The notes below the pieces were generated by a model. The model worked only from the letters and a program-made list of their open reading frames with translations, ran no database searches and was not told the origin of the DNA. Shown here piece by piece: positions 8,826 through 33,496 of a stretch of DNA of 64,000 nucleotides. This DNA is from an uncultured Clostridia bacterium (GTDB lineage Bacteria; Bacillota; Clostridia; Monoglobales; Monoglobaceae). The translations under genes were made by a program, and so were the position numbers. Location of the stretch: NCBI GenBank assembly GCA_947589045.1, contig CANQBQ010000009.1:1-64000 (forward strand), read 5' to 3'. Position 1 is the stretch's first letter, and each line of letters starts with the position of its first letter.

Positions 8826-11800
8826 TCATTGGTTTAAATACATGCTAACTTGATTCGGTAAACCGTCATCTTCTTTTTGAAGAATCGTCCAGTTTGTATA
8901 TCCTTTTTTGTCAAACCCATTGTATTTAATTCTAATTCTATCGCCAATTTTAAATAGTGCATCAAAATATATTTTCCCATCTGAGAGATTACGCGCATTA
9001 TTTATATGTATTTTATATTCACCAAGAATCCCGTCTATATTAAAATAAGCATAATAAGTCCGCAGAGTGCCGTTTTCATCTTGTTTCTCACCAAATCGTG
9101 TTATTATTGCATTATATTTTGTATCATCTTTCAATTCGAGCGAAGTTTTTACAATTTCCAAAATCTGCGTACAAATTTCACAATAATGGTTATATGTTTC
9201 TATATTGCCATAATTATATGGGTTTTGGCAAATATTTTCAATTTTTTCAACATTTTCCTTTGTTATTTCAGAATTGCCAAAGGAAATGTTACTATTTGTT
9301 GATAAATTATCAAATATTCGCCACAAATGGCGAACACCTACAATACCTTTACGTTTATTATATGTATTCAAAATTTCTTTTCGAAGCTTTGACATTTCCG
9401 TTAGAGCTTTTTTTATTTCCATGTTATTTTCTCTTATTTCTTCTTCAATTTTTTGGATTTCATCAGGTTTAGTATATTCTGCGGGGAATACAAAAGCCTT
9501 TATTTTTAATGATTTTTTTGTTTCTGTTGTTATGGTGCGTCTGCGGTCCATATAAGTGGGACTATCACGATAAGTTTTCCATGCTACATATAGCTGTTCT
9601 CCACTTATAATTTTAAGTTTTCCATTCACATCATACTGTAATGCGAGAATATAATTCGGCAATTCATATTCGAATTCGTTTACTTCTTTTTGTTGACCAT
9701 TTTCAAAATTATTCTTAATAATATTATTATCAAGTGTATTTGCCAAATATTCTTCTTTACGTTTATAACTATTAGAAGTTTTACTGTCATACTCAATTTC
9801 TACTGGAACAATATCCTCAAAAGCAACACCATGATAGCCATATTTTTCCGAACTAATAGCAGAGGCCGTATCATTATTATATTTGTATATATTGCCAAAC
9901 CAAGCAGGAAATTCCATACCATCATTTATATTTTTTATAAAGTTAAACTTTCCATTCATAATCTGTTGGATTATTTCTCTATCAGCTTCTAATTCCATAA
10001 GATAGTCCCACATAACGTCGTATATTCTCGTGCACACAAATTTAGCATATTCTCTGATTGACGGATGTGGCAATATTGCTTTTAATTGCATATCATTTAA
10101 ATCTCTTTCAATGGAATCAACCTTTTTTTCTTTAATCCAATCAATCATTTTGTCATGATTATGAAATCCGGTAAAAAGACGAGTTGCATATTTCACAGCA
10201 CAGTATGCGGTAAGATCCGGGCAGAATGACAGTGTTTTTATGATATGATAAACAAATATATTAACAGATTTATAATTTAACGTATTTGTAATATACTCTG
10301 TTTCGGTCAAATTTGGAAGTATTTTGCTGCGCATAAAATCAATAATATAAGAATAATCTTTAAGCACATCTTCATCATAATAAGTGCAAAGCGCAGCTTT
10401 CATTGGCAAGTCTTTTTCATAGTTCTCCCAAAATTTTTCATCTTGTGCGTAAGTAACAGCCAATTCTTTGGCTTTCTCTTTGAGCGTATTTGCATCTTTG
10501 ATTGTCTTTTGGTCGTTCGTACCTCCAATAGAATTCTCATCAGTATACTCAATATCCAATCTTTCAACATTATTGTTTTTTGCATAATGAAACAGAGCGA
10601 TTTTTATTTCATCACTCAATTTATCAAAAATTTCTTTAGATATGCAATATGATATTAAGTCATAAAGCGGTGATGTGTAACGTCCATTCTTTTTATTGTT
10701 ATTAAGTACAGAAATAAAGCCGCTTGTTATTTTTTTATTGTTTGGATCGTTAATTATTTCTATAAACTTATCTTTACCGATAATTCCGATAAAATTAGCA
10801 AATACCTGCACGCTGTCCATCCTTTCGTCTAATATTCCGTCAGGATTTTTCAAAAAGGCATTACACCAATAAATACAATCTTCATTTTTAACACTATTTT
10901 CGTTACAGCCAATCAGTGTTTCCACGGCATACAGTGACACATTTCGAAAACTTATTCTATCATTTTTGACAATGCGTGAATACGCGCATGACAATGCACT
11001 ATTAAAATACTTAATGACATCTTGATTATATTTATAATATTCATAAATCTTTATTATTACCAGCGGAGAAATTCTATCGTTTCCTGCTTCACCTTCACGT
11101 TTAAGGAATTTAAGTGTGGATTTATTGACGCTCTTAAATCCCAGAATTTTTTTATAATATTCTTGTCGTTTTTTCCACTCTTCCGGTTTTAATTTAATTT
11201 CATTGTATTTTTCTTTTATCTCCTCTATACTGTTATTTTGATTAGCATTATTCTGTGACGTTTGATTATTACACCATTTATCAAGATAATTATTAAAACT
11301 GTTATCATCATGGTTTTTGAAAAGAGTACACATTCTTTTCAAAAACGAATTCCCCACGCCGAGTAATAGTTTTGCAAGACGTCTTTTTTGTTGGCTATTT
11401 TCAGAATTGATGACACGTTGGATGGGGTTGTTAAATTTATTCCATACATCAGTGTTTTTTGAACGACATACATTCCAAACTTCCTTCCAAACGTTCACAT
11501 CAAGTGAGCCATTACCTATTATTTCACTCAAGCATCTGTCGCTCTGCTTTCCTAAATTCTCTTTAATCCATGTAACTGCTTTTTTCGAAAAAGCGGTTAT
11601 AAATGCATCGTACATTTCAAATTTCTCGAAAATCTTTTCTATGAATTTTTTTCGCTTTTCCGTTGAGCCTTCATCATTGCATGGAAATAAGTACTTTTTA
11701 TCTTTCTTTTCCACAAGCAAGCATAAATAATCTGAATCCAGATTGTTTGTTTCAGCTAAATGCTTTATTAAGTCATAAACGATTCTTTTATTATGATCGT

Positions 11801-13430
11801 CCCTCAAAAAGTTACCGTTATTCATGCAAATATAATTTAAATATTTTGAAATTGTAATATTAATTTCTATTTTGTTTTGACTTTGTTGCTCTCCCGGGTT
11901 TTCTATATGCAACGTTTCATCAAGATTATATGCGGCTTTAAGAATATCTAAGACCTCAGATATTCGCTTTGTATTAAATGCAGTTATATTACTTTTGCCT
12001 TTCTCATTCAGACGGACGTATACTTTTCCTTCTTCCATAGCAATCGAAAAATATGATAACAGGCTTTGCAAATTATCGTTATTCACATATTGAATGACCC
12101 CATCTGTCAATAATTGAAAATGGCTTCTATCAAGATAAGATGTGGCGTTATTCGGACTGCCGACAGCGTTATAAATAGCAATAAAGGTTTGCAATGTAAG
12201 AGGACAAGCGTTTTTAATTTCAAGTCCCTGCTGCAATGCATTGAAATCCCAGCGATACGTTTCTAAAATAGCCGCTATGTACGATATAAAGTTTTGAGTT
12301 TTGATACGACCGTTATCAGTGCCATAGATATCCAATTTGCGCAATTCAGTGTCAATTTCTCTGTATAAACCCAATTGGTTTCTTGAAAAATTTGATTGAC
12401 CATTGGTATTTTCTTCGAACGCTATTTTGATCGCTTCTATTGCTTCACGCATTTCCGAGGCATGTTGAAATCTCTTTTCCGGCATCTTATTTAGTCCCTG
12501 CCTTAAAAATTTCGCAGTTATTGTATTGAATATGTTATGCTGGATATTTGCATCATATTCAATATTGTCACCTTCAAATTTTTCTCCGGTAAGCATATAA
12601 TAAAAAATTGCCGCAACAGAATATAAGTCTGCCGAATATCCCAGTTCTTGGCCGTCGGGCTCTTTTCCGCTTAGATCTCCTAATTCCGGCGCGGAAAAAT
12701 TCTCTTTAGAGGTAAACACGCCGATATTACCATTGCGCGGAATAATGGTTTTTCCGTCTTTTTCTTCAATTTTCATCGCGCTGCCAAAATCAATCAACGC
12801 GACTCTTATATCTCCTTCTGTTGTGTCCTGAACATATATATTGTCAGGAGCAATATCCAAGTGTAGATAATTCCTTTTATGACAATGCTGAAGTACATAC
12901 AAAATTTTAATAATATATTCACAGCACTTGCTATCATTTAATATATCGGGATGTTCTTCTGCTTCTTCTATTATTGTTTCTAACGTTTTTCCACTAATGA
13001 ATGGCATTATAATATAAGCATTTTTTGCTCCATCTGTAGGTTTGCAATATGAACTATGATTTGGCACAGCATAAATCAATTCTTGTGACGAAAAATACCC
13101 ACTTTGAATTCCATCATCATTAAGCATCAATTTCCGATAAACTTCATTCTCATTTGTAAACATTTTTATAAGCTTCATAAGCTGTTTAAAAAGTTCTTGG
13201 TTAGATGAATATGTATCAATAATCCCATCTTTAGATCTTGTAGCCATTTTTGGAAAACATTCCTTTATAATATATGAAATTCTTGAGTCGTTTTCTTTAT
13301 GGGCTTTGTATACCAAAGAAAACCCACCTCGGGCGAGTATGGTATCAATAACATATTGATTATCTTGGCTATTTCCTGAAATAACTGTACCTTTAGTCAA
13401 TGCGGCTCTATTATCAATATTATCAGTCAT
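8826..13430 (-). CDS. Giant Ser/Thr protein kinase with ~1200-residue unknown C-terminus
   Basis: A 1534-residue protein. The N-terminal eukaryotic-like kinase domain (about 20-310) has a glycine loop ARGGFSLVYK (33-42), Lys56 in YIIKEC, HLD (190-192) in YLHLDIAPDN, DFG (214-216) and APE-like APEL (247-250), so it should be active. The HxDIAPDN variant lacks the usual catalytic-loop Lys but is common in bacterial kinases. The remaining ~1200 residues are mostly helical, rich in Asn, Lys and Ile, without membrane segments or recognised repeats. The end (FKIGDRIRIKYNGF...TNWTILQKED) looks like a small beta domain. The start at 13430 follows GGAGG. It overlaps the upstream pseudokinase by 8 bases and is markedly AT-rich relative to the host, suggesting acquisition. 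Substrate unknown. Confidence 0.8.
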   Translation of the reverse strand: MTDNIDNRAALTKGTVISGNSQDNQYVIDTILARGGFSLVYKAHKENDSRISYIIKECFPKMATRSKDGIIDTYSSNQELFKQLMKLIKMFTNENEVYRKLMLNDDGIQSGYFSSQELIYAVPNHSSYCKPTDGAKNAYIIMPFISGKTLETIIEEAEEHPDILNDSKCCEYIIKILYVLQHCHKRNYLHLDIAPDNIYVQDTTEGDIRVALIDFGSAMKIEEKDGKTIIPRNGNIGVFTSKENFSAPELGDLSGKEPDGQELGYSADLYSVAAIFYYMLTGEKFEGDNIEYDANIQHNIFNTITAKFLRQGLNKMPEKRFQHASEMREAIEAIKIAFEENTNGQSNFSRNQLGLYREIDTELRKLDIYGTDNGRIKTQNFISYIAAILETYRWDFNALQQGLEIKNACPLTLQTFIAIYNAVGSPNNATSYLDRSHFQLLTDGVIQYVNNDNLQSLLSYFSIAMEEGKVYVRLNEKGKSNITAFNTKRISEVLDILKAAYNLDETLHIENPGEQQSQNKIEINITISKYLNYICMNNGNFLRDDHNKRIVYDLIKHLAETNNLDSDYLCLLVEKKDKKYLFPCNDEGSTEKRKKFIEKIFEKFEMYDAFITAFSKKAVTWIKENLGKQSDRCLSEIIGNGSLDVNVWKEVWNVCRSKNTDVWNKFNNPIQRVINSENSQQKRRLAKLLLGVGNSFLKRMCTLFKNHDDNSFNNYLDKWCNNQTSQNNANQNNSIEEIKEKYNEIKLKPEEWKKRQEYYKKILGFKSVNKSTLKFLKREGEAGNDRISPLVIIKIYEYYKYNQDVIKYFNSALSCAYSRIVKNDRISFRNVSLYAVETLIGCNENSVKNEDCIYWCNAFLKNPDGILDERMDSVQVFANFIGIIGKDKFIEIINDPNNKKITSGFISVLNNNKKNGRYTSPLYDLISYCISKEIFDKLSDEIKIALFHYAKNNNVERLDIEYTDENSIGGTNDQKTIKDANTLKEKAKELAVTYAQDEKFWENYEKDLPMKAALCTYYDEDVLKDYSYIIDFMRSKILPNLTETEYITNTLNYKSVNIFVYHIIKTLSFCPDLTAYCAVKYATRLFTGFHNHDKMIDWIKEKKVDSIERDLNDMQLKAILPHPSIREYAKFVCTRIYDVMWDYLMELEADREIIQQIMNGKFNFIKNINDGMEFPAWFGNIYKYNNDTASAISSEKYGYHGVAFEDIVPVEIEYDSKTSNSYKRKEEYLANTLDNNIIKNNFENGQQKEVNEFEYELPNYILALQYDVNGKLKIISGEQLYVAWKTYRDSPTYMDRRRTITTETKKSLKIKAFVFPAEYTKPDEIQKIEEEIRENNMEIKKALTEMSKLRKEILNTYNKRKGIVGVRHLWRIFDNLSTNSNISFGNSEITKENVEKIENICQNPYNYGNIETYNHYCEICTQILEIVKTSLELKDDTKYNAIITRFGEKQDENGTLRTYYAYFNIDGILGEYKIHINNARNLSDGKIYFDALFKIGDRIRIKYNGFDKKGYTNWTILQKEDDGLPNQVSMYLNQ

Positions 13431-15012
13431 CGTTACATTCCTCCATGATTTGGTTATTATATGAACGTTGTAACCACTTTGTAAATTTGTCAAGCAATTT
13501 TTTAAAGTTATCAATGCGTTGTTCATTAGGAGGTCCTATTAATATTTGTCTTAAACAATACTCTATAGATTCATTTTCAGTATCATCAGTCACCATTGTA
13601 TTCCATATGCTAAGTTTACCCGCAACATCCGACAATGTAAAGATTGTGCGATAGGTGACTGGTTGTCCAAAAAGCAAATATGACAAAAGCACACCATAAG
13701 AATATATATCAGCCTGTCTCCAATCCATTGTATCATACGATGATCTTTGTGCTTTTTTAACCCAAGGAGCGCAATAGACACCCATATCGATAAAGGACTG
13801 GATAGCGTTGTTAATAACAGTACCCTCGGCAGCAAGATCTTTTGCTTCCATCAATCCGGTAATATATGGTATATATTCATTATGATTTTTTATAAGCAAA
13901 AAGGAATCATTTGTTAAGGTTCTTATATAAATATCTTTTTCATGAAGATGATTAATTGTATTCCCTATTCCTATGGCAATTTTCACACGATCGACTACAG
14001 GAAATGATGTATCATTTACTAAATCATCGTTAATATGCAGTGGTTTACTGTTGAAATATTGATATAAAATAATTCGATTAATGTCATTAGTCGTTATATT
14101 TCTTATTTTAGTCCTGCTTGAGTAAGGCATAAAAATATCATTACTATGATTTTCACAAATTTGGTTATATGTTGAAAAGAAATGATCAAGATCCTTCTTA
14201 GCGTCATTATATTGTTGAGCGTTATACAGTGTAATCATAGCATATTCATTACTGTTATCTATTTTTTTGTATATACCGCTTTTTGTAGTATATTTTTCAA
14301 ATTTTTTCTCTCGTATTGTTTCGCCGTTTTCAAGCACCCATTCCTCCACAGGCTCTAAAACAGGAATACGCGAATCATTAAACTCTCCACAATTAGATTT
14401 ATAAAGCTTCTTTAAAACTTCATAAATCACGCGAAGATAATAATCTTCATTTTCAATATCATTAAAATTCACATAAGCATTGTTGTTTTTTGCGTAGGTT
14501 TTTAATGCTCTTATTGTATTTGAATCTGCACCGGTGTGTAGAATCACATGACAAGAATATGCATAGATGTATATAAGTTGCTTACCTATTTTTTCAATAT
14601 CGCTATATCTGTTATATATGTCATCATTATATATGTATAAGCAGCACATAGCGAGGTTATGGGCTTTGGACCATGTATTAGCTTCAGCTTCTGATATCTC
14701 CATTACTTCGATTTGCATGTTTTTATAGAAATCACATATATTGTTATTGAAATCCCTATATCTGTTCTCATTAAAATAATAACGTGGTTCCGACCACCTA
14801 GTCTGTACATAATTTCTAAAGGCCATCCGATCATAATCGCTATGGTTTCTTATTGAATTAATTTCTTCATTAAATTCTTCTATAGCCAATCGCACATTCA
14901 ACATTGACGTTTGGAAATCCGTATAAGCATTTTTTTCGGCATTTTCAAGATAAAATTTCGCCATATCATTAGCAGCATGACAGCCGTTAAATAATTCTGT
15001 AAAATTACCCAT
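13423..15012 (-). CDS. Pseudokinase partner protein
   Basis: A 529-residue protein. The C-terminal ~200 residues follow the kinase C-lobe pattern but lack catalytic residues. INHLHEKDIYIRTLTNDSF stands where HRDxKPxN should be, YITGLMEA where DFG should be, and GVYCAPWVKK where APE should be. The following WRQADIYSYGVLLSYLLFG is a typical kinase segment (D-x-Y-S-x-G-V). The N-terminal ~300 residues are helical and unrecognised. AGGAGA precedes the ATG. Its end overlaps the start of the active giant kinase by 8 bases, so the two are co-translated. A regulatory or scaffold role toward that kinase is inferred. Confidence 0.7.
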   Translation of the reverse strand: MGNFTELFNGCHAANDMAKFYLENAEKNAYTDFQTSMLNVRLAIEEFNEEINSIRNHSDYDRMAFRNYVQTRWSEPRYYFNENRYRDFNNNICDFYKNMQIEVMEISEAEANTWSKAHNLAMCCLYIYNDDIYNRYSDIEKIGKQLIYIYAYSCHVILHTGADSNTIRALKTYAKNNNAYVNFNDIENEDYYLRVIYEVLKKLYKSNCGEFNDSRIPVLEPVEEWVLENGETIREKKFEKYTTKSGIYKKIDNSNEYAMITLYNAQQYNDAKKDLDHFFSTYNQICENHSNDIFMPYSSRTKIRNITTNDINRIILYQYFNSKPLHINDDLVNDTSFPVVDRVKIAIGIGNTINHLHEKDIYIRTLTNDSFLLIKNHNEYIPYITGLMEAKDLAAEGTVINNAIQSFIDMGVYCAPWVKKAQRSSYDTMDWRQADIYSYGVLLSYLLFGQPVTYRTIFTLSDVAGKLSIWNTMVTDDTENESIEYCLRQILIGPPNEQRIDNFKKLLDKFTKWLQRSYNNQIMEECNDD

Positions 15013-19696: not shown

Positions 19697-22600
19697 TTAC
19701 GCGCCGAAATGCTGTTCCACAAGCTGCTCAAGCGTTCCGTTCTTTGCCGCCTCCGCTGCATCGGCTTGAACAAAATTTTTCGTTTCGCTTTTCAGCGTTT
19801 TGTCAAAGCCGAGAATGTAGTTCGTGGCAATACGGTAAATAATCTGCGTGGGAGCCATACCGTACACCTGTTTGCGCAGTATGTGACGTATACGTTCCCC
19901 GTCGTCGGGATAAGCCGCTTTAATGCCCGGGCTATGATACAGCCGCTTTACTATTTCGGTGATATACAATCCGGACTTCATATAAAGGTCCGCAAAGGTA
20001 TGAGTGGGGTTATCGAAGCAGTCGGGGTTTTCGGCTTCCAGCTCGTCGACCATCTTTTTTACTACCCAGCGCGGAGTAAAAATCTGGTTAGTTTTCTGCG
20101 GCGGGATATAATCAAAAATATCTTCGGTATGACTTTCGTCAAAATAATCCGCCAGCTCCGCCTTCTTACGCAGAAATTCCTTTACCGAATCATCAAATAC
20201 TACAGGGTCAAACAAATTGCCGTTAAAATGCTTTGTCTCGCCCGTTTCTTTATCAATGTAGTCGCCGCCGTCGCGAAGCATACGGAACTGCGCGAGTGAA
20301 ATACCGGTCACCTCGATAAAAACTTCGTCCGGAATTACTCGGTCAAAGCCCGCTAACGTCAGATCCTCTGTTCCGTACGCCATTAGGAACGACGGAATAG
20401 TCCGGCTGAAACCGCGCAGGTGATCGCGAATATCATTTTCAATGCCTTCTTTCTGACGGGTTTTTACATTTGTTTCCATAGTTTCAACTACCGTCTTGGG
20501 CATGCTGTCGACAATATCCTGTACGGTGCCTTTAAGCTCAGTTTCCAGCTGCTGTATTGCCTCCTCCTGCTTTTTGTCATGCTCCTGATTGACTTGCGAG
20601 AGCTGCTCACGCGATGCGCCGGATTCCTTTGCCTGCTGCAGCGCGTCCTTGCGCTCCTGCTCGATTGTATTTTTCCGGATAGTGTAATTGCCACATACTT
20701 TATCAATGGCATTGTCGGTATCGGAAATCAGCATTTTTTCAAGACTCCGCTCATCGGAACGCTTCATGTCGTCACCGTAATGATCTTTTGCGGTCTGCAC
20801 CACATTGGCAACCACATCATTATGCAGTTTTTGCTTGAGCGCCTCGATTTCATCCGCTCCGTTTTCGTTTGCCGCGGAGGCTGCGGCACTGATTTCATCG
20901 GCAAATTCGGCCTCAACATCGCCGTAGAGCTTTTCGCCGAATATATCAGGCGTCAGCCCCACAACATATTCATCGCTCAATTCCACATCACCGTCGCTGT
21001 TCAAGGGTATATCGGACATCGCGGCTGTATCGATTTTTCCTTTGTTTGACGGTTCTTCAACCGGAGTAAACTGAGAAATAATATCTACTATCTCCTGCGG
21101 AGCGCCGAACACGTTGCTGATATTCTGAAACAGGAAATTGGACATAAATCCGCGCCGAACGACCTCAACAGATTTGATTTTACGCGGTATTGACAATACC
21201 TTTTCGGCGTCCAGCTCAATCATTTCGCCGTCATCGTCCTCGCCTATAACGGGAAAGAAATTCAAAAGCTCGCGGATATGGCGTTTTCTGGCGTCTGTGT
21301 CTCCTCGACCCGCCGCGGTATCACGGGACAGGTCGTTTGCGAACTGCTCAAAAATAATCAGCGTCCTTGCCGGGTCAAAGTCGAAAACATAAGCGTTCTC
21401 TTTACGATACAGCCCGTTGCCTACACGGAACAGGCACGGATTTTGCGCGCGGAAAGCCGCCTGCATATAGAGCGCCGGAGACTTGACATTTGAAAGCATC
21501 AAAACTGCCGTCCATTCGGGAATTGTAACGCCGGTCGTCAACTGACCGACGGAGAGAGTGATTGTCTTATCGTATTTTTTTATCGCGTCAACCACTTTGT
21601 CATATGATTTTTTCGTTTCCTCGGTATCGTCAAGCTTACCGTCACCCGCGGCAAGCACTACCTTGTACTCTTTGAATACAGGATGGCTTTCCAGCTTTTT
21701 CGCAAGAAGGCGCGCGGATTCAACGCGGTCCAACAGCCAGAATGTATGCCGCAGCTCATCGCGGAGCTCCGGCGTGCTGAACGGAAATTTTTCCTGAATG
21801 GTAAGCGCGTCAAGAAAACGGTCAACCGATTCATCATGCATAAAGCGACCGTTATTCACAGCAAAAAACTCATTCAAATCAAAGGCGTATTCCTCGGTTG
21901 TACCGTCAATATCCACGCCCTGTTCAAGCTCATCCATAATGACGCGGCTCATCTGATATGTAAACAAATTCAGCTTCGGAAGCACCGCATACGGATTTTC
22001 ATCCGTACCGCTCCATTCGGCTTTTTTGCGCTGCTCGTCAGCGTAAGTCCAGTTGTAGATTGCGTCGTCCGGAAATTTATCATTCGCCAGAGCCTTAAAC
22101 GGCGTGCCGGAAAGGTGCAGCGTAAACTTGCGCCGGATATGGTCGAACGCAATATCCGTCTTGTAGGTATCGACTCCCTCGTGAGCTTCGTCAACAACAA
22201 GAACGTCCCATTCTATGTCGCGAATTTCCTTAAGTTTACCATATGATCCGCCAAAATACGTCGAGCCCTTTAAATCCTGAAGAGAAACAAACTCTATAAG
22301 TCCCATGCGCTTAGCTTGGGGATCCTTGGAACGGTTTTTTTCATCTTGCTCAAACGTCTTATAATCCATGACCTGCGGCTTATCCTTAATTCCGTCCACG
22401 GAGCTTACGAAAAAATAACCGTTTTTGCGTCCGACAAAACGTTCGTAATCATTATACCAGGAATTTGCAATAGCCGGACGGTTTGTGACAACTAAGACGC
22501 GTTTTGCATCGATACGCATAATAAAGTCATAAACAGACAGTGTTTTACCAAATCGCGGCTTTGCGTTCCAAAGGAACTCGCCGCCCTCATGGTCGTTACG

Positions 22601-23068
22601 GTAAGCCACAGTCCGCGAAACGGCGTCCTCCTGTTCTTCTCTCAAAGAGTAGGAAGAAATCTCAGAAATATCACCAGGGATACCGCGGTTGGAACGAAAT
22701 TCGTTAAAGTGAGCGCGGGATTCACTTGCTCCTATATGGAACCACTCGTTGCGGTCCTTCGGGTCAAAATACTCGTTTCCCTCGTCCTGCGGCTGACGAA
22801 CGCCGACCCTGCGGAGATAGACATGGAAGTCCTTGTCGTGAAATACGTCGCCGGAGCCGTCGTCATAGACCGCGCTGCCCTGCCATTCTTTGTGCGCCAT
22901 GATTCCCGCCGTATGTGTCTGCTGGTAAATACGGGTATCAACATCCTGCTCGGTATAGCCTATCTTGATATAGCCGTCATGATAGGTAACGCCCGGGGTC
23001 GTATAGGCGTAAATCATCGGAACCACTTTGTAAGAAGGCTTGATTAAATCCTTTATTTCCGCCGCCAT
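19697..23068 (-). CDS. GIY-YIG-like nuclease / SF2 helicase / degenerate methylase fusion
   Basis: A 1123-residue restriction-like protein. The N-terminus (about 18-115) resembles a T5orf172-type GIY-YIG nuclease: IYAYT, GYIKIGYT (32-39) and NEWF (108-111). A superfamily 2 helicase follows, with AKPRFGKT (169-176), DEAH (293-296), SGTPFK (320-325) and QAAFRAQNP as motif VI. A long Glu/Gln-rich helical insert comes next. The last ~130 residues mimic the SAM half of a DNA methylase: IFTPRWVVKKM (motif X, from 996), FADLYMKSGLY (motif I, without the usual PxCGSG), VYGMAP (motif II-like) and a FVQAD segment. No NPPY motif follows here; it sits in the gene upstream. GGAGATGAACTGAT precedes the ATG, one base after the previous stop. 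Confidence 0.8.
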   Translation of the reverse strand: MAAEIKDLIKPSYKVVPMIYAYTTPGVTYHDGYIKIGYTEQDVDTRIYQQTHTAGIMAHKEWQGSAVYDDGSGDVFHDKDFHVYLRRVGVRQPQDEGNEYFDPKDRNEWFHIGASESRAHFNEFRSNRGIPGDISEISSYSLREEQEDAVSRTVAYRNDHEGGEFLWNAKPRFGKTLSVYDFIMRIDAKRVLVVTNRPAIANSWYNDYERFVGRKNGYFFVSSVDGIKDKPQVMDYKTFEQDEKNRSKDPQAKRMGLIEFVSLQDLKGSTYFGGSYGKLKEIRDIEWDVLVVDEAHEGVDTYKTDIAFDHIRRKFTLHLSGTPFKALANDKFPDDAIYNWTYADEQRKKAEWSGTDENPYAVLPKLNLFTYQMSRVIMDELEQGVDIDGTTEEYAFDLNEFFAVNNGRFMHDESVDRFLDALTIQEKFPFSTPELRDELRHTFWLLDRVESARLLAKKLESHPVFKEYKVVLAAGDGKLDDTEETKKSYDKVVDAIKKYDKTITLSVGQLTTGVTIPEWTAVLMLSNVKSPALYMQAAFRAQNPCLFRVGNGLYRKENAYVFDFDPARTLIIFEQFANDLSRDTAAGRGDTDARKRHIRELLNFFPVIGEDDDGEMIELDAEKVLSIPRKIKSVEVVRRGFMSNFLFQNISNVFGAPQEIVDIISQFTPVEEPSNKGKIDTAAMSDIPLNSDGDVELSDEYVVGLTPDIFGEKLYGDVEAEFADEISAAASAANENGADEIEALKQKLHNDVVANVVQTAKDHYGDDMKRSDERSLEKMLISDTDNAIDKVCGNYTIRKNTIEQERKDALQQAKESGASREQLSQVNQEHDKKQEEAIQQLETELKGTVQDIVDSMPKTVVETMETNVKTRQKEGIENDIRDHLRGFSRTIPSFLMAYGTEDLTLAGFDRVIPDEVFIEVTGISLAQFRMLRDGGDYIDKETGETKHFNGNLFDPVVFDDSVKEFLRKKAELADYFDESHTEDIFDYIPPQKTNQIFTPRWVVKKMVDELEAENPDCFDNPTHTFADLYMKSGLYITEIVKRLYHSPGIKAAYPDDGERIRHILRKQVYGMAPTQIIYRIATNYILGFDKTLKSETKNFVQADAAEAAKNGTLEQLVEQHFGA

Positions 23069-23069
23069 A

Positions 23070-24083
23070 TCAGTTCATCTCCTTTACGTGTGTCTCGATA
23101 AATTCGATTTCGGCATCGTCAAGCCCGTATTTTGCATAAAGCTGCCGGTCGATTTCAGGGATGGACTTCGACCAGTCAATGTCGGATGCAGCGGTGAAAT
23201 CCTGAAGGGGGACGTATTTCCAGACAGGTTTTTTGCCATTTTGAGTGACTTTAAGAACACCAAGCATCGTTCTTGCAAACTTTGTTTTAATATACTTTAA
23301 ACAAGACTCAGCTTCATCTCTCGTTTCAAAACAGCCAAAACTGATAAATGTTTGGGTATAGCCTATCAGAGGCGTGCCTATCAGAGGCGTGCTAATTACT
23401 TCACCGATAGCTCCGGAACCGTTATTCGCTGGGACAATAACCTTATACTTAGTCAAATTACCATAGGTTTCATCAATATACATACGTTTTATATATTTGT
23501 AAATCCTTTTTTTATTATAACCTAAGATTTTAACATCATCATTCTGTTTTTCGTCTCTAAAACAAGGGAATACAATACATCCGCTTGTCATTCGCCGTTC
23601 ACGTCCATTACTGCTTATTTTTGACCGCAAATCTGGGAAATCATTATATAATTCCATTAAGTTAAAATAGTTCTGATTATATATTATACTCATAATAGAG
23701 TCATTACTTAAAGCGTTCACTTTTTTTAATATAGAGTTCAGTTCATCAAAAGCCGTATAATGAATAATAGCACCATAATTCTTAGCTGCATCTCTGTAAT
23801 GAATTGCAACGCCGCCTTTGATGTCAACAGAACTAAAAAACTTTGAGGAATCCGCAGAATAATCCAATACCTTAAAATGCTCATCATTGAGCATCTTCAT
23901 ATTCCAAGCGGCGGGTGTATTGCCGTTATTAAATAAAAAACGGGCAGGGGTAATCAATTCAACACGGTCAGAAATAGCATAAGCCGCATTCATAAAATTT
24001 GCATAAAGTGAAGCATCACTTATCTTTTCGCCTGCCGACTCCTCTTGATATGGCGGATTTCCAATTATAAAATCAAATTTCAT
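23070..24083 (-). CDS. Eco57I-like methylase half: NPPY motif plus target-recognition region
   Basis: A 337-residue protein that begins directly at methylase motif IV: MKFDFIIGNPPYQ (NPPY at 9-12), the catalytic motif for N6-adenine methylation. It continues with segments typical of Eco57I/type IIG enzymes (LITPARFLFNNG; NGSGAIGEV; TPLIGTPLIGYTQTFI). The SAM-binding motifs X and I that should precede NPPY are missing, so it cannot be a complete methylase alone. Such halves are encoded by both neighbours. ATGA overlap with the upstream gene and a one-base gap to the helicase gene show tight co-translation. A DNA-level tandem repeat underlies TPLIGTPLIG. Confidence 0.82.
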   Translation of the reverse strand: MKFDFIIGNPPYQEESAGEKISDASLYANFMNAAYAISDRVELITPARFLFNNGNTPAAWNMKMLNDEHFKVLDYSADSSKFFSSVDIKGGVAIHYRDAAKNYGAIIHYTAFDELNSILKKVNALSNDSIMSIIYNQNYFNLMELYNDFPDLRSKISSNGRERRMTSGCIVFPCFRDEKQNDDVKILGYNKKRIYKYIKRMYIDETYGNLTKYKVIVPANNGSGAIGEVISTPLIGTPLIGYTQTFISFGCFETRDEAESCLKYIKTKFARTMLGVLKVTQNGKKPVWKYVPLQDFTAASDIDWSKSIPEIDRQLYAKYGLDDAEIEFIETHVKEMN

Positions 24084-24988
24084 TTCCGGTTTTCCTCCTT
24101 TAGTTTTCTGTATTCCAGACTGCGTTTCGCCCGCCAGTCGTAAATCCGGCAGGGCGGCTGCCCGTGATCCTCCGGTTCCTCATCTTCCAATAAATCAAAC
24201 ATTGAGAACTGTTCATATTCCTCCGCTGCTTTGCAATAGGGGATCGTCCCCGTCAATCCGTCCATCTGCCATATATTCCATGAAATTATATTCAACAAAT
24301 GCTTGTATTCGGGGACAGAAGGCTTGCGTCCAAGCTTTGCAAGCATATAATCGTCAAATGTCAGCAGCAGATTAAGCCGCGCCAGCAGGACGTTGTCGCC
24401 CTGGAACTCATATCCGTATGTCGCCTGAAACGCTCTGTATGCCCATTTGAGCCATTCGTCCTCATCAGACGCATTTTCGGACACCACCCGCAGCTTGCGG
24501 TCCAATATTCCGACCCTTGACTCCATAGGCACGTCCTCGCCGGTAGAAACGTCATAACGGCTCACCAGATACGGTGCTTCTCCGCAGGTGATTTCCAGGC
24601 GGCGTGAATCAACATATTTCCGCCAGTTCTTTCCGTTCGGAAACACGACCCGTTCCCCATCAAACGCCCCGTCATAGCCGAACCATTCCGCGTCTATATA
24701 GTCGTTCATTTTTTTCACGACCCACAGCGGAGTAAATACTTCGGCGTGAGCCTTTGTACGCTTCGCCTGCGCGTCTCCCGTTTTATCCGTGCGGCTGATA
24801 AGCCGGAACCGCGCCCAAATAAGCAGCTCGCCGGTAATTTCCTTGTCGCGCCGGTAATTCTCGCCGAAATCATTGTAAACGTCCGTCGCCCAAATAATAT
24901 TGCCCTTTGAGGTTTTATCCGTAAGCAGAAGGTTCAGCAGCTTCATGCCGGAAAGCCTGTTTAATTCATTCTGCACTGCGGCACACAC
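24080..24988 (-). CDS. Restriction-system methylase subunit, SAM-binding half
   Basis: A 302-residue protein of the subunit M family found in type IIG/ISP-like restriction systems. EVFTPLWVVKKM is motif X, RRLEITCGEAPYLVSRYD motif I with the CG turn, YGYEFQGDNVLLARLNLL motif II, and IISWNIWQMDG the region before motif IV. No NPPY is present; it is supplied by the next gene. The start is taken as GTG 24988 with GGGGG nine bases before it. Upstream in-frame starts lie above the promoter at 25032-25060 and would be outside the transcript. First gene of the operon. Confidence 0.8.
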   Translation of the reverse strand: MCAAVQNELNRLSGMKLLNLLLTDKTSKGNIIWATDVYNDFGENYRRDKEITGELLIWARFRLISRTDKTGDAQAKRTKAHAEVFTPLWVVKKMNDYIDAEWFGYDGAFDGERVVFPNGKNWRKYVDSRRLEITCGEAPYLVSRYDVSTGEDVPMESRVGILDRKLRVVSENASDEDEWLKWAYRAFQATYGYEFQGDNVLLARLNLLLTFDDYMLAKLGRKPSVPEYKHLLNIISWNIWQMDGLTGTIPYCKAAEEYEQFSMFDLLEDEEPEDHGQPPCRIYDWRAKRSLEYRKLKEENRK

Positions 24989-25031: not shown

Positions 25032-25060
25032 ATTATACCATTTAATGAGTGGTTTTTCAA
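25032..25060 (-). promoter_or_regulatory. Promoter of the restriction-like operon
   Basis: On the minus strand TTGAAA (25060-25055), 17-base spacer, perfect TATAAT (25037-25032). It fixes the first gene's start downstream, at the GTG 24988. Between here and repeat C (25061-25223) nothing else was recognised. Confidence 0.82.
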
Positions 25061-25303: not shown

Positions 25304-25576
25304 TTATAGTTTTTCATTTTCAGAAACTTCACCTACAATATGCCATTCAAACATTTCTTTGAAATCATTAAAGCATTCCTCGCATATCCAATGATATCTA
25401 TCTTCAGTAGAATATGCAAGCAACGTGTTTGCATCAATTCTCTCCGAACAAAATGCACAGTGTTCGTGCTCCCAACCTTCTCTGAATGGAATAAATTTAC
25501 CTTTAATAAGATTCTTTTTATACAGATAATTTTTTTGATTTGTTAATCTCCAATCATTGTTATTCATATACGACAA
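25304..25576 (-). CDS. Small four-Cys protein, candidate immunity protein
   Basis: 90 residues with CAFC and CEEC spaced about 26 apart (CAFCSERID...YHWICEECFNDF), a likely zinc knuckle. The rest is acidic and aromatic-rich. It starts 6 bases after the toxin-like gene upstream, the usual place for an immunity protein of a polymorphic toxin. Family not recognised with certainty; zinc-ribbon transcription-related function is the alternative. Confidence 0.6.
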   Translation of the reverse strand: MSYMNNNDWRLTNQKNYLYKKNLIKGKFIPFREGWEHEHCAFCSERIDANTLLAYSTEDRYHWICEECFNDFKEMFEWHIVGEVSENEKL

Positions 25577-25582
25577 TCTCCT

Positions 25583-25861
25583 TTACTTTTTTTCAACACG
25601 CCCATCGGGAAAAACTCTATAATTATTTCCATATTTATCAGTATAGTCCCAATGAGGACCGATTGGATCACTATGATTTAAATCAGAGTTCCATTTTTCG
25701 CCCGTTTTGGGATTATACCAATTATCCTTTCCTTCTTTAGGCGAAGATTTCCCACGCCATTCAAAACCTTTTCCCGGCGATTTGCCGGGATTATTCCCAG
25801 GGTACTTTATATTCTTTGAGCCTATTGTATTTCCGAAATTCCCTCCTGCGCCAGCACCCAT
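25583..25861 (-). CDS. Orphan polymorphic-toxin tip (Ntox37-like)
   Basis: A 92-residue frame rich in Gly, Asn and Lys, ending SDPIGPHWDYTDKYG...YRVFPDGRVEKK. GPHWDY...YRxFPDG matches what I recall of the Ntox37-type toxin domain at the C-terminus of large secreted polymorphic toxins. Signal, repeat and delivery regions are missing. The frame is open for a few codons upstream (AGDCLMGAGAGG), so the ATG may be internal to a lost larger gene. No ribosome site is evident. Probably a displaced toxin cassette tip with its immunity gene. Confidence 0.6.
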   Translation of the reverse strand: MGAGAGGNFGNTIGSKNIKYPGNNPGKSPGKGFEWRGKSSPKEGKDNWYNPKTGEKWNSDLNHSDPIGPHWDYTDKYGNNYRVFPDGRVEKK

Positions 25862-30166: not shown

Positions 30167-33100
30167 TTAAAGCTCGATAACTTCTCCGGCTTCGACTATA
30201 AGCGCGCTCGGAGTAACAAACTGCTCCGCTCTCTCGCGATTGAACAGTTCGCCCGGCGACATATGAATGGGAACGGTGTGCTTCGCGCCGATAAGCTCCG
30301 CGCACTCGATCGCTTCGGGTATGTCCATATTAAAATGTCCGTCAATCGGCAAAAACGCGTATTCAATATTCTTATCCTTAAGCTCCGCCATTTGGTCTGT
30401 TTTTGAGGTGTCGCCCGCGAAATACAGCGTCTTTCCATTCACCGTAACAAGGTAGCCGACGCACTGCCCTACATCGTGGTTTTTGTTATACGCCTGCACA
30501 GGCTCGATATGAACGCCCGCAAAGTCAAGCGTCTTATAGCCGTCGTCCGTTATCGCGTCGCTGTTTTGGAAAATCACGCAGCCGTCCGACTGCGGCACCA
30601 AGTCAATCTTGTTGTGGTCGGGATGCTGATGCGTCACGAGAATTAAGTCCGCTTCCTTGTCGTAGCCCTCGCCCGCATACGGGTCGATGTAAATAACCTC
30701 GCCCGTTCCGAGCGTCAGACGGAAGCTCGCGTGTCCTTGATATAAAAGTTCTGCCATATTGTTCTCCTCCTTGTTTTCGGTATTGTTTCCACAGCCTTTG
30801 TCAGCAGGCGCGGCTGTTTCAACCGTAATTGCTTCGCTCAGCGGCATTATTTCTCCGAGCGAGTTCCAAAGCATAAACTTATCGCCGCTTCTCGTCGGTA
30901 TAGTGGTTGTGCCATTCTCCGCGTCGGTGATTTCAAGTCCCGAAATCACTCCGCCCGTGTATGACGCGTGAATTAGCTTCGCACTTCCCTCGAGATTGCT
31001 TATGGTAAGTGCTCCGTTCTCATAGACCATATTTACCTGCGGACGCAGAGTGGGCGTCGGGCTTGGCGTTGGTGTCGCTGTCGATGTCGGCGACGGTGTT
31101 GGTGTAACCGTTGACGTTGGCGTTGATGTCGGTGTCACTGTCGGCGTCGCTGTTGGTGTCGGCGTCGCTGCCGATGTCGGCGACGGTGTTGGTGTAACCG
31201 TTGACGTTGGCGTTGATGTCGGTGTCACTGTCGGCGTCGCTGTTGGTGTCGGCGTTACTGTCGGTGTAGGGGTTGGCGTTGTGGTCGGAGTCGGCGTTAC
31301 TGTCGGTGTCGCTGTCGGCGTCACTGTTGGTGTCGGCGTTACTGTCGGTGTAGGGGTTGGCGTTGTGGTCGGAGTCGGCGTTACTGTCGGTGTCGGACTT
31401 GGCGTTGTGGTCGGAGTCGGTGTTACTGTCGGTGTAGGTGTCGTCGTCGTCGTCGGACTTGGCGTTGGTGTCGGTGTAACCGTTGCCGTTGGCGAGTCTG
31501 TCGGATTTGGCGTTGTAGACGGGAGCGCGTTCCATTGGGCTTTTAAATATACTTCGTCGTCATCAAAAAGAACTATATCGTTGCGCGGGTCAAAGCGTTC
31601 GCTGAACCCTTTTGTTGTACACCAGCCGAAAAAGCTGTAGCCACTGCGTTCGGGATCGGGAATTTCCTGCGAAATACGTGTGTTTTTCCGTGCCTGTACA
31701 ACAAATTCCGGTTCGTTGTTGTCCGGATTGAAATGAATGGTAATTAGCTTGCCGGGAAGGTCGCTCCAATGGGCATATACGGTAACGTTATCCTCTATAA
31801 TTCGCTGTGTATCCGCGATTTTATTACCTCCCGACGCTTTTGTAAACCACCCAAGAAATGTCCGCTCGCCCCATGTGGGTTCCTCGGGTATAATTTCGCC
31901 GTAGAGCGAATACTGCTTTGTCGTTTTACTCATTTGCGGCGTGTTTCCACCATCATTATAATCGAAGCGGACTGTAACATCATCCTCCGGACCGTCGTCC
32001 CAAAGGGAGTATCCGTCCATAACCGCCATACGTACTCGTTTAAACAGCCTGTAACGCTCCGGGCAGAGAATCATGATTGCCCGCCGCCAGTCCTGCTTTG
32101 TATAGCCGGTAAAATAAAAACGGCAAAATTCGGCAAAATCCTCCAGATTGCTCGTATGAGCATAGTCGGTGAGCGTATAGCAATCGTATTCCATGGCATT
32201 TTTCCATTCCGTTTTCGTTGAAAACCGGGAATACCCGTTGTCGTAATACCACAAGTCGATACTGTGCCCCAGCTCGTGGACGATACTTTCTATCATAGTG
32301 GAGGCAGCCGGCGTGGTTGAAAGTATTATATTAATATGCGTTGCGTAGCATTGGTATACACCGCTGCCGGGGGTTGGGCTTTTGTAACATGTGGCGTCTT
32401 TAATATGATTTCGGAGTTCATAGGGAATGCGCGCCATTACTTCGCCGAAGGTTTTCGCGTTTTTCCGACCGTTTGTACTGTCCTGAATGGATATTTGTAT
32501 GGTTTGTACGCGTTCTCGACCCTCCTCATCTGTATCGTAAATTTTGAGAATATAAGGGAAAAACTCGGTTCCGTCAGGCGCGTCGGTGAAGGGTTTGTTT
32601 TGGGGGTTAAGCGTATAGTATGCGCCCTCTGTTCCGGGAAGATCCATGCTCACGTTATAGCCGGAGGTCATCTGTTTGGTCACATAGGCAAAGCCGAGAC
32701 TGTTCTTAAATCTAAAGGTAATACTGTTATGAAATGCGTCCGCAGTCATATTCTTATCCTTGATTTTGTCGTAATAATATTTGTCGATTGCCGCGCGCGG
32801 CGTCTCCTTTTCGCCTGTTCCGTACGGACTGCATGTCTCAAATACATCTCCCGCAACGCTCTCATACACGCGCTCTATCTGCGTACGCTGATTTTGCGGC
32901 AGCGTGTCGTATCCGGGCTGCAAAGACAGCAAATAAAGCGGACTTTCATCGGGGACGGGCTTAAATGATATTTCCGCTTTTTGTTCCTCGTCCGCCGCGA
33001 TCAATTCGCCGCTGTCCGACACACCCATATATTTCCCGTTATCAAGGCTTTTCAGATAGTACGTTTTCGAGCCGTCATTTTCCTCCAAAAGCCAATGTTG

Positions 33101-33496
33101 GGTGTCGTCGTCAAGCCCCGCGAAATCGTCGGGTTGCGCCGTGAGCGATTTGCGGATATTATAAAGCGTCGCCGGCAGGGGCTCTCCTTGCTCCGCCTTA
33201 GCTATACGTCTTTCGGTTTTTTTGTTTTCAAACGCGTAGCTGCCGTCGCCCATATAGCGTGGCAGGAACAAATCGCTCCCGTCGGATGCGGGATTATTCG
33301 TCAAAATAAACTTATCGCCGCTTTGACACACAATTTTACCGTCGATACAAATCCGCTGATAAATTCCCGCAAAGCCGTTGTACGCGCCGGCGCTTTCGTC
33401 TGCTCCTACGTTTACGGGTACAATAACGGAAAAAAGCGCGCACAAAACTATCGCCGCGCAAATCCGACATCTTATGCAAAAGCTCTTTTGAATCAT
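30167..33496 (-). CDS. Secreted metallopeptidase / repeat / beta-lactamase-fold fusion
   Basis: 1109 residues. Signal peptide (1-32); an unassigned region; a zincin domain with [11 protein letters not shown] (407-417) and a downstream ...DFAEF glutamate as in anthrax-lethal-factor/M34-like peptidases; two InlB-type beta repeats (about 507-577, 584-656); a Thr-Pro linker (about 657-825); a small Ig-like module ([16 protein letters not shown]); and from Met914 a UlaG-like metallo-beta-lactamase domain ([17 protein letters not shown]). AAGGAGGAG lies within the codons just before Met914 (ATG at 30757), so the last 196 residues may also be made as a separate cytosolic protein, or the gene arose by fusion of two. 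Both catalytic sites look intact. Confidence 0.8.
31050..31510 (-). repeat. Coding minisatellite for the Thr-Pro linker
   Basis: Imperfect tandem repeats of short TPTPT/TPTVT-coding units with higher-order copies of ~90 bases (one starting near 31083, the next near 31173) and a further pair near 31262 and 31349. Likely length-variable by slippage. The open frame on the opposite strand is a by-product of the repeat. Confidence 0.85.

What the first reader, a model, noticed from the sequence alone, without database searches (positions are those of the whole stretch)
19697..24988. DNA methylase split over three co-transcribed genes with motif order reversed
The methylase motifs are distributed oddly. 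Gene 1 (24080-24988) has motifs X, I and II (FTPLWVVKKM, LEITCGEAPYL) but no NPPY. Gene 2 (23070-24083) starts at NPPY and has the target-recognition part but no SAM site. The C-terminus of gene 3 has another X/I/II set (FTPRWVVKKM, FADLYMKSGLY) and again no NPPY. Normal gamma-type N6-adenine methylases have X-I-IV in one chain. Here one NPPY half could pair with either of two SAM halves, one intact (gene 1) and one degenerate and tied to the nuclease-helicase. Swapping partners could switch the complex between methylation and cleavage.
Basis: partly seen in the sequence, partly recalled or inferred. Interest (0 to 1): 0.8.

Follow-up and report, generated by a model that had tools for sequence, protein, structure and literature searches.

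The report
Split methylase sharing one recognition half
This is a complete three-gene phage-defence (restriction-modification) operon of a known but little-studied "split methylase" kind, in which a single DNA-recognising half of the methylase appears to serve both an active methylating partner and an inactive look-alike partner carried on the DNA-cutting motor protein.

Summary
The split is real and is not an artefact. Gene 1 (24988-24080) carries methylase motifs X-I-II-III. Gene 2 (24083-23070) starts at MKFDFIIGNPPY and carries the rest plus the target-recognition part. Gene 3 (23068-19697) is a GIY-YIG nuclease and SF2 translocase ending in a second X-I-II-III half. Genes 1-2 are in normal motif order; only gene 3's half lies downstream of NPPY.
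The family is known: PADLOC restriction-modification models match all three genes; the closest characterised systems are DrdVI (m6A, GCAGCC) and MaeIV ("split methylase/RM genes").
Results I did not find described: (1) complete loci have two X-I-III halves but one NPPY half. (2) The nuclease-linked half is a conserved pseudo-half: Lys replaces a motif-I Gly in 83/84 and the motif-II acid is lost in 84/84; gene 1 keeps both. (3) The NPPY half is fused to gene 1 in 28 loci, to the pseudo-half in at least 22, free in 33, with repeated switches. (4) Two plasmid systems with 100% identical gene 1 and 98% identical motor diverge right after NPPYQ.
One recognition half very probably serves both modification and restriction. 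A physical partner-swap switch is plausible but not shown. New variant of a known kind.

The parts
25032..25060 (-). Promoter-like site TTGAAA-17-TATAAT with extended -10, just upstream of gene 1
   Evidence: 11/12 consensus matches, TG before the second hexamer; a consensus match only
24080..24988 (-). Gene 1 (M1-like, 'G1'): SAM half of a gamma N6-adenine methylase, motifs X, I, II, III, no NPPY
   Evidence: (PADLOC PDLC03390 MTase_II, E 7.6e-88, near full length); GTG start with Shine-Dalgarno
23070..24083 (-). Gene 2 ('G2'): begins at the NPPY strand (MKFDFIIGNPPYQ, 24083-24045), catalytic half plus target-recognition part; overlaps gene 1 by ATGA
   Evidence: Pfam Eco57I positions 73-171, E 1.8e-14; PDLC03375 MTase_II E 2.2e-31; C-terminal third of PDLC03626
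19697..23068 (-). Gene 3 (R): T5orf172/GIY-YIG nuclease domain, SF2 (ResIII/DEAH) translocase, helical linker and C-terminal half-methylase
   Evidence: ResIII E 3.5e-13; T5orf172 E 4.9e-4; PDLC03626 E 1.1e-12
22097..22561 (-). Translocase motifs in gene 3: KPRFGKT (22561-22541), VVDEAHEG (22198-22175), LSGTPF (22114-22097)
   Evidence: seen directly in the sequence
19697..20113 (-). Pseudo-SAM half at the C-terminus of gene 3 ('G3C'): IFTPRWVV, FADLYMKSGLY (Lys for Gly in motif I), VYGMAPTQ (no motif-II acid), NFVQADA, then stop at the boundary where NPPY would follow
   Evidence: ortholog of the N-terminus of M2.DrdVI

Best explanation
A DrdVI-like split restriction-modification system with one shared recognition/catalytic half. 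Gene 1 plus gene 2 assemble into a complete gamma-class N6-adenine methylase: gene 1 binds SAM; gene 2 supplies the NPPY active site, base flipping and DNA recognition. This pair modifies host DNA, most likely one strand of a short asymmetric site. Gene 3 is the restriction subunit. It has no recognition domain of its own and takes its specificity from the same gene-2 half, through its C-terminal pseudo-half, which keeps the layout and boundaries of a SAM half but has an invariant Lys in place of a motif-I Gly and no motif-II acid. Such a complex can read an unmethylated target but should not methylate it, and couples recognition to the translocase and GIY-YIG nuclease. Shown by sequence: the parts, their boundaries, the one-NPPY-to-two-halves ratio, the conserved pseudo-half, the repeated change of covalent partner, and module exchange at NPPY. 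Inferred: that the pseudo-half docks on gene 2 at the same face as gene 1 (alternative complexes), that it does not bind SAM, and that this pairing is the restriction state.
For: Fusions: NPPY half fused to gene 1 in 28 loci, to the nuclease-linked half in 16 R proteins (plus L164) and 5-8 DrdVI-like M2 proteins, free in 33; no locus with two NPPY halves other than frame breaks. On the R tree, split and fused gene 1-gene 2 interchange at least 12 times (most parsimonious count) and fusion to R arises in several places. Boundaries: gene 3 ends 87-95 aa after motif I in nearly all; NPPY follows motif I by 84-107 aa in most R fusions; free gene 2 starts 8-14 aa before NPPY. Module swap: pL11991-5 vs pSS1302, gene 1 100%, motor 98%, pseudo-half 99%, gene 2 29%; R chains 90-100% identical up to NPPYQ, then about 8-32%. 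Pseudo-half: Asp 84/84, Gly 84/84, Lys 83/84, motif-II acid 0/84; gene 1 motif-I Gly 128/128, motif-II acid 137/137. The gene 1-gene 2 natural fusion L012 folds with pLDDT 89.5, pTM 0.82 and resembles CamA, M.BseCI, BrxX, LlaBIII. Biochemistry of relatives: M1-2.DrdVI GCAGCC m6A, M1-M2.MaeIV GCACY m6A, cloned.
Against: Covariation between the pseudo-half and gene 2 across 71 loci gave no signal, though gene 1-gene 2 gave almost none either and the effective number was 60. In the DrdVI-like M2 model the pseudo-half region is low confidence. M1+M2 of DrdVI methylates although M2 carries its pseudo-half in cis, so displacement by M1 would be needed if binding is exclusive. In fused gene 1-gene 2 proteins gene 3 would have to compete with a covalently attached half. 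No member has a published restriction assay that I found.
Confidence: 0.5

Rival explanations
1. Obligatory holoenzyme without swapping: gene 2 pairs with gene 1 only, and the pseudo-half of gene 3 is a docking and allosteric piece that binds the gene 1-gene 2 methylase elsewhere, as R docks on M2S in Type I systems. Specificity is still shared, but there is no partner exchange.
For: Cloned M1+M2 of DrdVI methylates with the pseudo-half present. In 28 loci gene 1 and gene 2 are one chain. No covariation of pseudo-half with gene 2.
Against: The pseudo-half has the layout of a SAM half, ends exactly where NPPY begins, and is directly fused to the NPPY half in at least 22 loci. A docking module would not need those boundaries.
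Confidence: 0.35
2. Two working methylases: both halves bind SAM, so gene 1-gene 2 and gene 3-gene 2 both methylate, for example on different strands or states.
For: Motif X FTP and the motif-I Asp are retained in the pseudo-half.
Against: Invariant Lys for Gly in motif I and loss of the motif-II acid in all 84. Reported m6A motifs of DrdVI and MaeIV are each a single motif, and MaeIV modifies a single strand.
Confidence: 0.05
3. Vestige: gene 3's half is a leftover of an ancestral single-chain Type ISP/IIG-like enzyme and has no present function.
For: Domain layout of the fused R proteins is like Type ISP (nuclease-translocase-methylase-TRD), and LlaBIII is among the fold matches.
Against: Near-invariant residues and fixed length over distant lineages, and its retention as part of M2 where the motor is a separate gene.
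Confidence: 0.05
4. The split is an assembly or annotation artefact or recent frameshift in one genome.
For: About half of the type A relatives have gene 1 and gene 2 fused.
Against: 32 other loci share the split; ATGA overlap and good ribosome-binding sites.
Confidence: 0.01

Closest known systems
DrdVI (Deinococcus wulumuqiensis plasmid pDrdVI; M1-2.DrdVI, m6A at GCAGCC; listed as Type IIG)
   Same: Same three kinds of parts: a separate canonical SAM half (M1), the pseudo-half and NPPY/TRD half, and a GIY-YIG/translocase R. The window's gene 3 C-terminus is the ortholog of the N-terminus of M2.DrdVI (A-type-only profile E 4.9e-13, against 0.015 for M1).
   Different: In DrdVI the pseudo-half is fused to the NPPY half (M2) and the motor is a separate gene; in the window the pseudo-half is on the motor and the NPPY half is free.
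MaeIV (Methanococcus aeolicus; M1-M2.MaeIV, m6A at GCACY)
   Same: [quoted passage not shown] M1 and M2 cloned together.
   Different: Sequence not compared here; the arrangement of its restriction gene was not examined.
Type ISP enzymes LlaGI / LlaBIII
   Same: Order nuclease-translocase-methylase-TRD is the same as in the natural R fusions (pRS5, pL8); LlaBIII appears among fold matches.
   Different: From memory, ISP enzymes are one chain with one active methylase and a different nuclease. Here the nuclease is GIY-YIG, the SAM half on the R chain is a pseudo-half, and a second, separate SAM half exists.
Type I R-M systems (HsdR/HsdM/HsdS)
   Same: One exchangeable recognition subunit serves modification and restriction; accessory genes such as RhuM, Bro-N, KilA-N and YhcG/DUF1016 sit between gene 1 and gene 2.
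   Different: HsdS has no catalytic motif; here the shared subunit carries the NPPY active site, and there is a single TRD-bearing half.
Type IIG-like systems with a single recognition module (Blow et al. 2016, PMC4752239)
   Same: One recognition domain for the whole system, with rearranged nuclease, translocase and methylase parts.
   Different: The arrangements described in the passages read keep the methylase domain whole; here it is cut between motifs III and IV and has two alternative first halves.

Membership tests
DrdVI-like split methylase/RM family | Separate SAM-half protein (M1) without NPPY | tested here: met
   Gene 1 has X, I, II, III and no NPPY
DrdVI-like split methylase/RM family | NPPY half with TRD homologous to M2.DrdVI C-terminus | tested here: met
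   Gene 2 and M2.DrdVI both match PDLC03375 and the C-terminus of PDLC03626
DrdVI-like split methylase/RM family | Pseudo-half homologous to M2.DrdVI N-terminus | tested here: met
   Non-circular profile hit E 4.9e-13; shared Lys in motif I
DrdVI-like split methylase/RM family | R subunit with GIY-YIG and translocase | tested here: met
   T5orf172 and ResIII domains; same PDLC03626 match as DrdVI R
DrdVI-like split methylase/RM family | m6A methylation of a defined asymmetric motif | not testable with these tools
   Needs a methylome of the host or a clone
Type IIG (single recognition module for modification and restriction) | One target-recognition domain in the whole system | tested here: met
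   One NPPY/TRD half per locus; only one gene-2 match in the whole genome; module exchange
Type IIG | SAM-stimulated cleavage at a fixed distance | not testable with these tools
   Needs purified enzyme; the translocase suggests an ATP-dependent mode instead
Type ISP | Nuclease, translocase, methylase and TRD in one chain | tested here: not met
   Three genes in the window; met only in part by type B relatives, which still have a separate gene 1
Type I | Non-catalytic S subunit with two TRDs, and complete M subunit | tested here: not met
   Gene 2 carries NPPY; gene 1 lacks motif IV

The most novel reading that the evidence does not exclude
The NPPY/recognition half is a true exchangeable subunit that alternates between two mutually exclusive partners at one interface, an active SAM half for methylation and a Lys-bearing pseudo-SAM half that makes a catalytically silent reader driving translocation and cleavage, so that the choice of partner decides between protecting and cutting a site.
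Probability: 0.35. Interest if true: 0.85.

Novelty: new variant of a known kind. Interest (0 to 1): 0.58.

Why it matters
If right, restriction and modification specificity rest on one exchangeable half-enzyme, so a single gene exchange retargets both activities at once; nature appears to have done this between plasmids of lactic acid bacteria. It gives a testable answer to how a restriction subunit without its own recognition domain is aimed, and a conserved pseudo-SAM half with an invariant lysine is an unusual solution for reading a target without methylating it. It may also offer a modular scaffold for engineering specificity.

Tried and rejected
Sequence searches of solved structures with genes 1-3 and with both alignments gave no credible relative; the weak gene-2 hits to coronavirus nsp3 are taken as chance. 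NCBIfam gave nothing useful. A covariation test of gene 1-gene 2 and pseudo-half-gene 2 across 71 loci was uninformative. The structure of the pseudo-half-NPPY fusion (L174 M2) is confident only for the NPPY/TRD part; the pseudo-half is mostly low pLDDT, so it does not settle docking. A viral-contig scan with the Pediococcus fusion found nothing. Considered and rejected: local frameshift artefact (32 other split loci), vestige (conservation), 'reversed motif order' for genes 1-2 (order is normal), a second NPPY half in the loci (only unrelated methylases). The more distant R fusions (B2: L067, L144 and others) are assigned a pseudo-half by position and motif only; the A-type profile does not reach most of them. 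MaeIV was not compared by sequence. Two papers cited for split methyltransferases in PMC4335053 were not traced.
Full report
WHAT IS THERE. Three minus-strand genes form an operon at 24988-19697. A sigma-70-like promoter with extended -10 lies at 25060-25032; its -35 box coincides with the TTG that would give a longer gene 1, so the GTG at 24988 preceded by AAGGGGGTG is the likelier start. Genes 1 and 2 overlap by ATGA and both downstream genes have strong ribosome-binding sites. Gene 1 carries methylase motifs X, I, II, III; gene 2 starts eight residues before NPPY and carries the rest of the catalytic domain and the recognition part; gene 3 carries a T5orf172/GIY-YIG domain, an SF2 translocase and a second X-I-II-III half that stops where NPPY would follow. 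The gene-2 half occurs once in the whole 1.8 Mb genome. Genes 1 and 2 are therefore in ordinary gamma-methylase order, and only gene 3's half is out of order.

IT IS A KNOWN FAMILY. PADLOC profiles for restriction-modification proteins match all three: PDLC03390 (gene 1, near full length), PDLC03375 (gene 2, near full length) and PDLC03626 'REase_MTase_IIG' (gene 3, and gene 2 at its C-terminus). A homolog search led to plasmid pDrdVI of Deinococcus wulumuqiensis 479. DrdVI is a characterised system: M1-2.DrdVI methylates adenine in GCAGCC and is listed as Type IIG (PMC6430315). Its R is described as a fused translocase and REase, the related B. trehalosi protein having a GIY-YIG domain (PMC4996451). 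[quoted passage not shown] A profile made only from window-like gene 3 C-termini finds the N-terminus of M2.DrdVI at E 4.9e-13, but M1.DrdVI only at 0.015. Gene 3's tail is thus the ortholog of the M2 N-terminus, and gene 1 is the counterpart of M1.

ONE NPPY HALF, TWO SAM-TYPE HALVES. Among loci with complete sets, 32 have gene 1 | gene 2 | gene 3; 28 have gene 1-gene 2 fused; 16 have the NPPY half fused to the C-terminus of the nuclease-translocase; 5 (plus 3 in which the gene 1 profile did not ring) have the DrdVI order, pseudo-half-NPPY half | motor; one Arthrobacter plasmid has gene 1 | gene 3 | gene 2. L164 adds another R fusion with a short canonical gene 1. No locus has two NPPY halves apart from frame breaks. 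On complete small plasmids such as pRS5 (10 kb), gene 1 has no NPPY partner other than the one on R. On the tree of the translocase domain the fewest changes between split and fused gene 1-gene 2 is 12, and fusion to R arises in several places (quick tree, some long branches, fewer changes forced by well-supported branches alone). So the NPPY half has repeatedly changed its covalent partner between gene 1 and the nuclease-linked half.

BOUNDARIES. Stand-alone gene 3 ends 87-95 residues after its motif I in all but one of the ORFs measured; in most R fusions NPPY comes 84-107 residues after the same motif. Free gene 2 starts 8-14 residues before NPPY in every case. Gene 1 ends mostly 155-177 residues after motif I, and NPPY comes mostly 168-178 residues after it in the fused proteins. 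All cuts fall at the same point, between motifs III and IV.

THE NUCLEASE-LINKED HALF IS A CONSERVED PSEUDO-HALF. In 84 sequences motif I is (F)xDxxxK(S/T)Gx(Y/F): Asp 84/84, Gly 84/84 and Lys 83/84 where SAM-binding loops have a glycine. The motif-II acid is absent in 84/84. In contrast gene 1 has the motif-I Gly in 128/128 and a motif-II acid in 137/137. M1.DrdVI has a textbook EPACGSGNFL / YGIELLEDN, and M2.DrdVI has DPCTKSGVFL / FGIGI. Fourteen more distant R fusions have SK(T/S/M)G at the same place, assigned by position and motif only. The inference that this half does not bind SAM rests on family knowledge, not a test.

MODULE EXCHANGE. R proteins of Loigolactobacillus backii pL11991-5 and Pediococcus pentosaceus pSS1302 are 90-100% identical in every 40-residue stretch up to LDMKFDVVVGNPPYQ and about 8-32% identical beyond it, with gene 1 100% identical. 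Low gene-2 identity (29-34%) recurs in other pairs with 79-100% identical gene 1 and motor. Fused gene 1-gene 2 proteins L035/L036/L038 differ mainly in the middle, recognition part. One module therefore changes, and both the methylating and the cutting partners accept it. Accessory genes (Bro-N, KilA-N, RhuM, HNH, DUF1016/YhcG, AlbA_2, AbiH) are inserted between gene 1 and gene 2 in several loci, reminiscent of Type I loci.

STRUCTURE. The natural gene 1-gene 2 fusion L012 is predicted confidently (pLDDT 89.5, pTM 0.82) and resembles CamA, M.BseCI, BrxX, LlaBIII and DrdV. The pseudo-half-NPPY fusion L174 resembles BrxX, CamA and M.TaqI, but its pseudo-half is low confidence, so docking is not settled.

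HOW IT MOST LIKELY WORKS. Gene 1 plus gene 2 modifies; gene 3 restricts, aimed by gene 2 through the pseudo-half. That gene 2 is the only specificity determinant for both activities I hold at about 0.85. Whether the two halves exclude each other (a switch) or sit together in one holoenzyme is open: methylation by DrdVI M1+M2, where the pseudo-half is in cis, fits either displacement or a three-part complex. Covariation was uninformative.

NOVELTY. The family and its split are known. The searches here found no description of the invariant-Lys pseudo-half, the two-to-one ratio, the change of fusion partner, or the exchange at NPPY, but the library holds open-access papers only and REBASE could not be queried. 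I rate it a new variant of a known kind.

Noticed in passing
window 25583-25861 (-), with ORF 25304-25576 (-): A 92-aa Ntox37-like toxin-domain fragment (Pfam PF15535, E 1.1e-6) followed by a small ORF without a Pfam match that could be its immunity gene, just upstream of the operon.
   Followed up: partly
L119 4348-6951 (Tenacibaculum phage PTm1): The phage carries the NPPY half followed by gene 1, in reversed order and without any restriction gene nearby, as if to protect its own DNA with a split methylase.
   Followed up: partly
L116 (E. faecalis pL8), L118 (E. faecium pK195-6b-A): Type B members of this family sit on enterococcal plasmids; on pL8 the system is next to optrA, erm(A) and ant(9)-Ia.
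   Followed up: no
L112 2660-3844 (Bifidobacterium longum plasmid p1): An IS256-family transposase gene lies between gene 1 and gene 2, with the rest of the system present.
   Followed up: no
L064 7902-9047: A decayed relative: gene 1 runs into ...LFDFVIGN and the rest of the NPPY half and gene 3 are missing.
   Followed up: no
L146, L153, L172 M2 proteins: DrdVI-like M2 proteins carry a Cys-rich insert (for example WVGNKCKYCGA) between the pseudo-half and NPPY, possibly part of a zinc-binding element.
   Followed up: no
window 30167-33496 (-): A 1109-aa protein joins Flg_new repeats, a long Thr-Pro repeat stretch and a beta-lactamase-superfamily domain; a fusion or misassembly worth checking.
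   Followed up: no
window 8826-15012 (-): Two adjacent genes with protein kinase domains; the second is below Pfam's cut-off and may be a pseudokinase.
   Followed up: no
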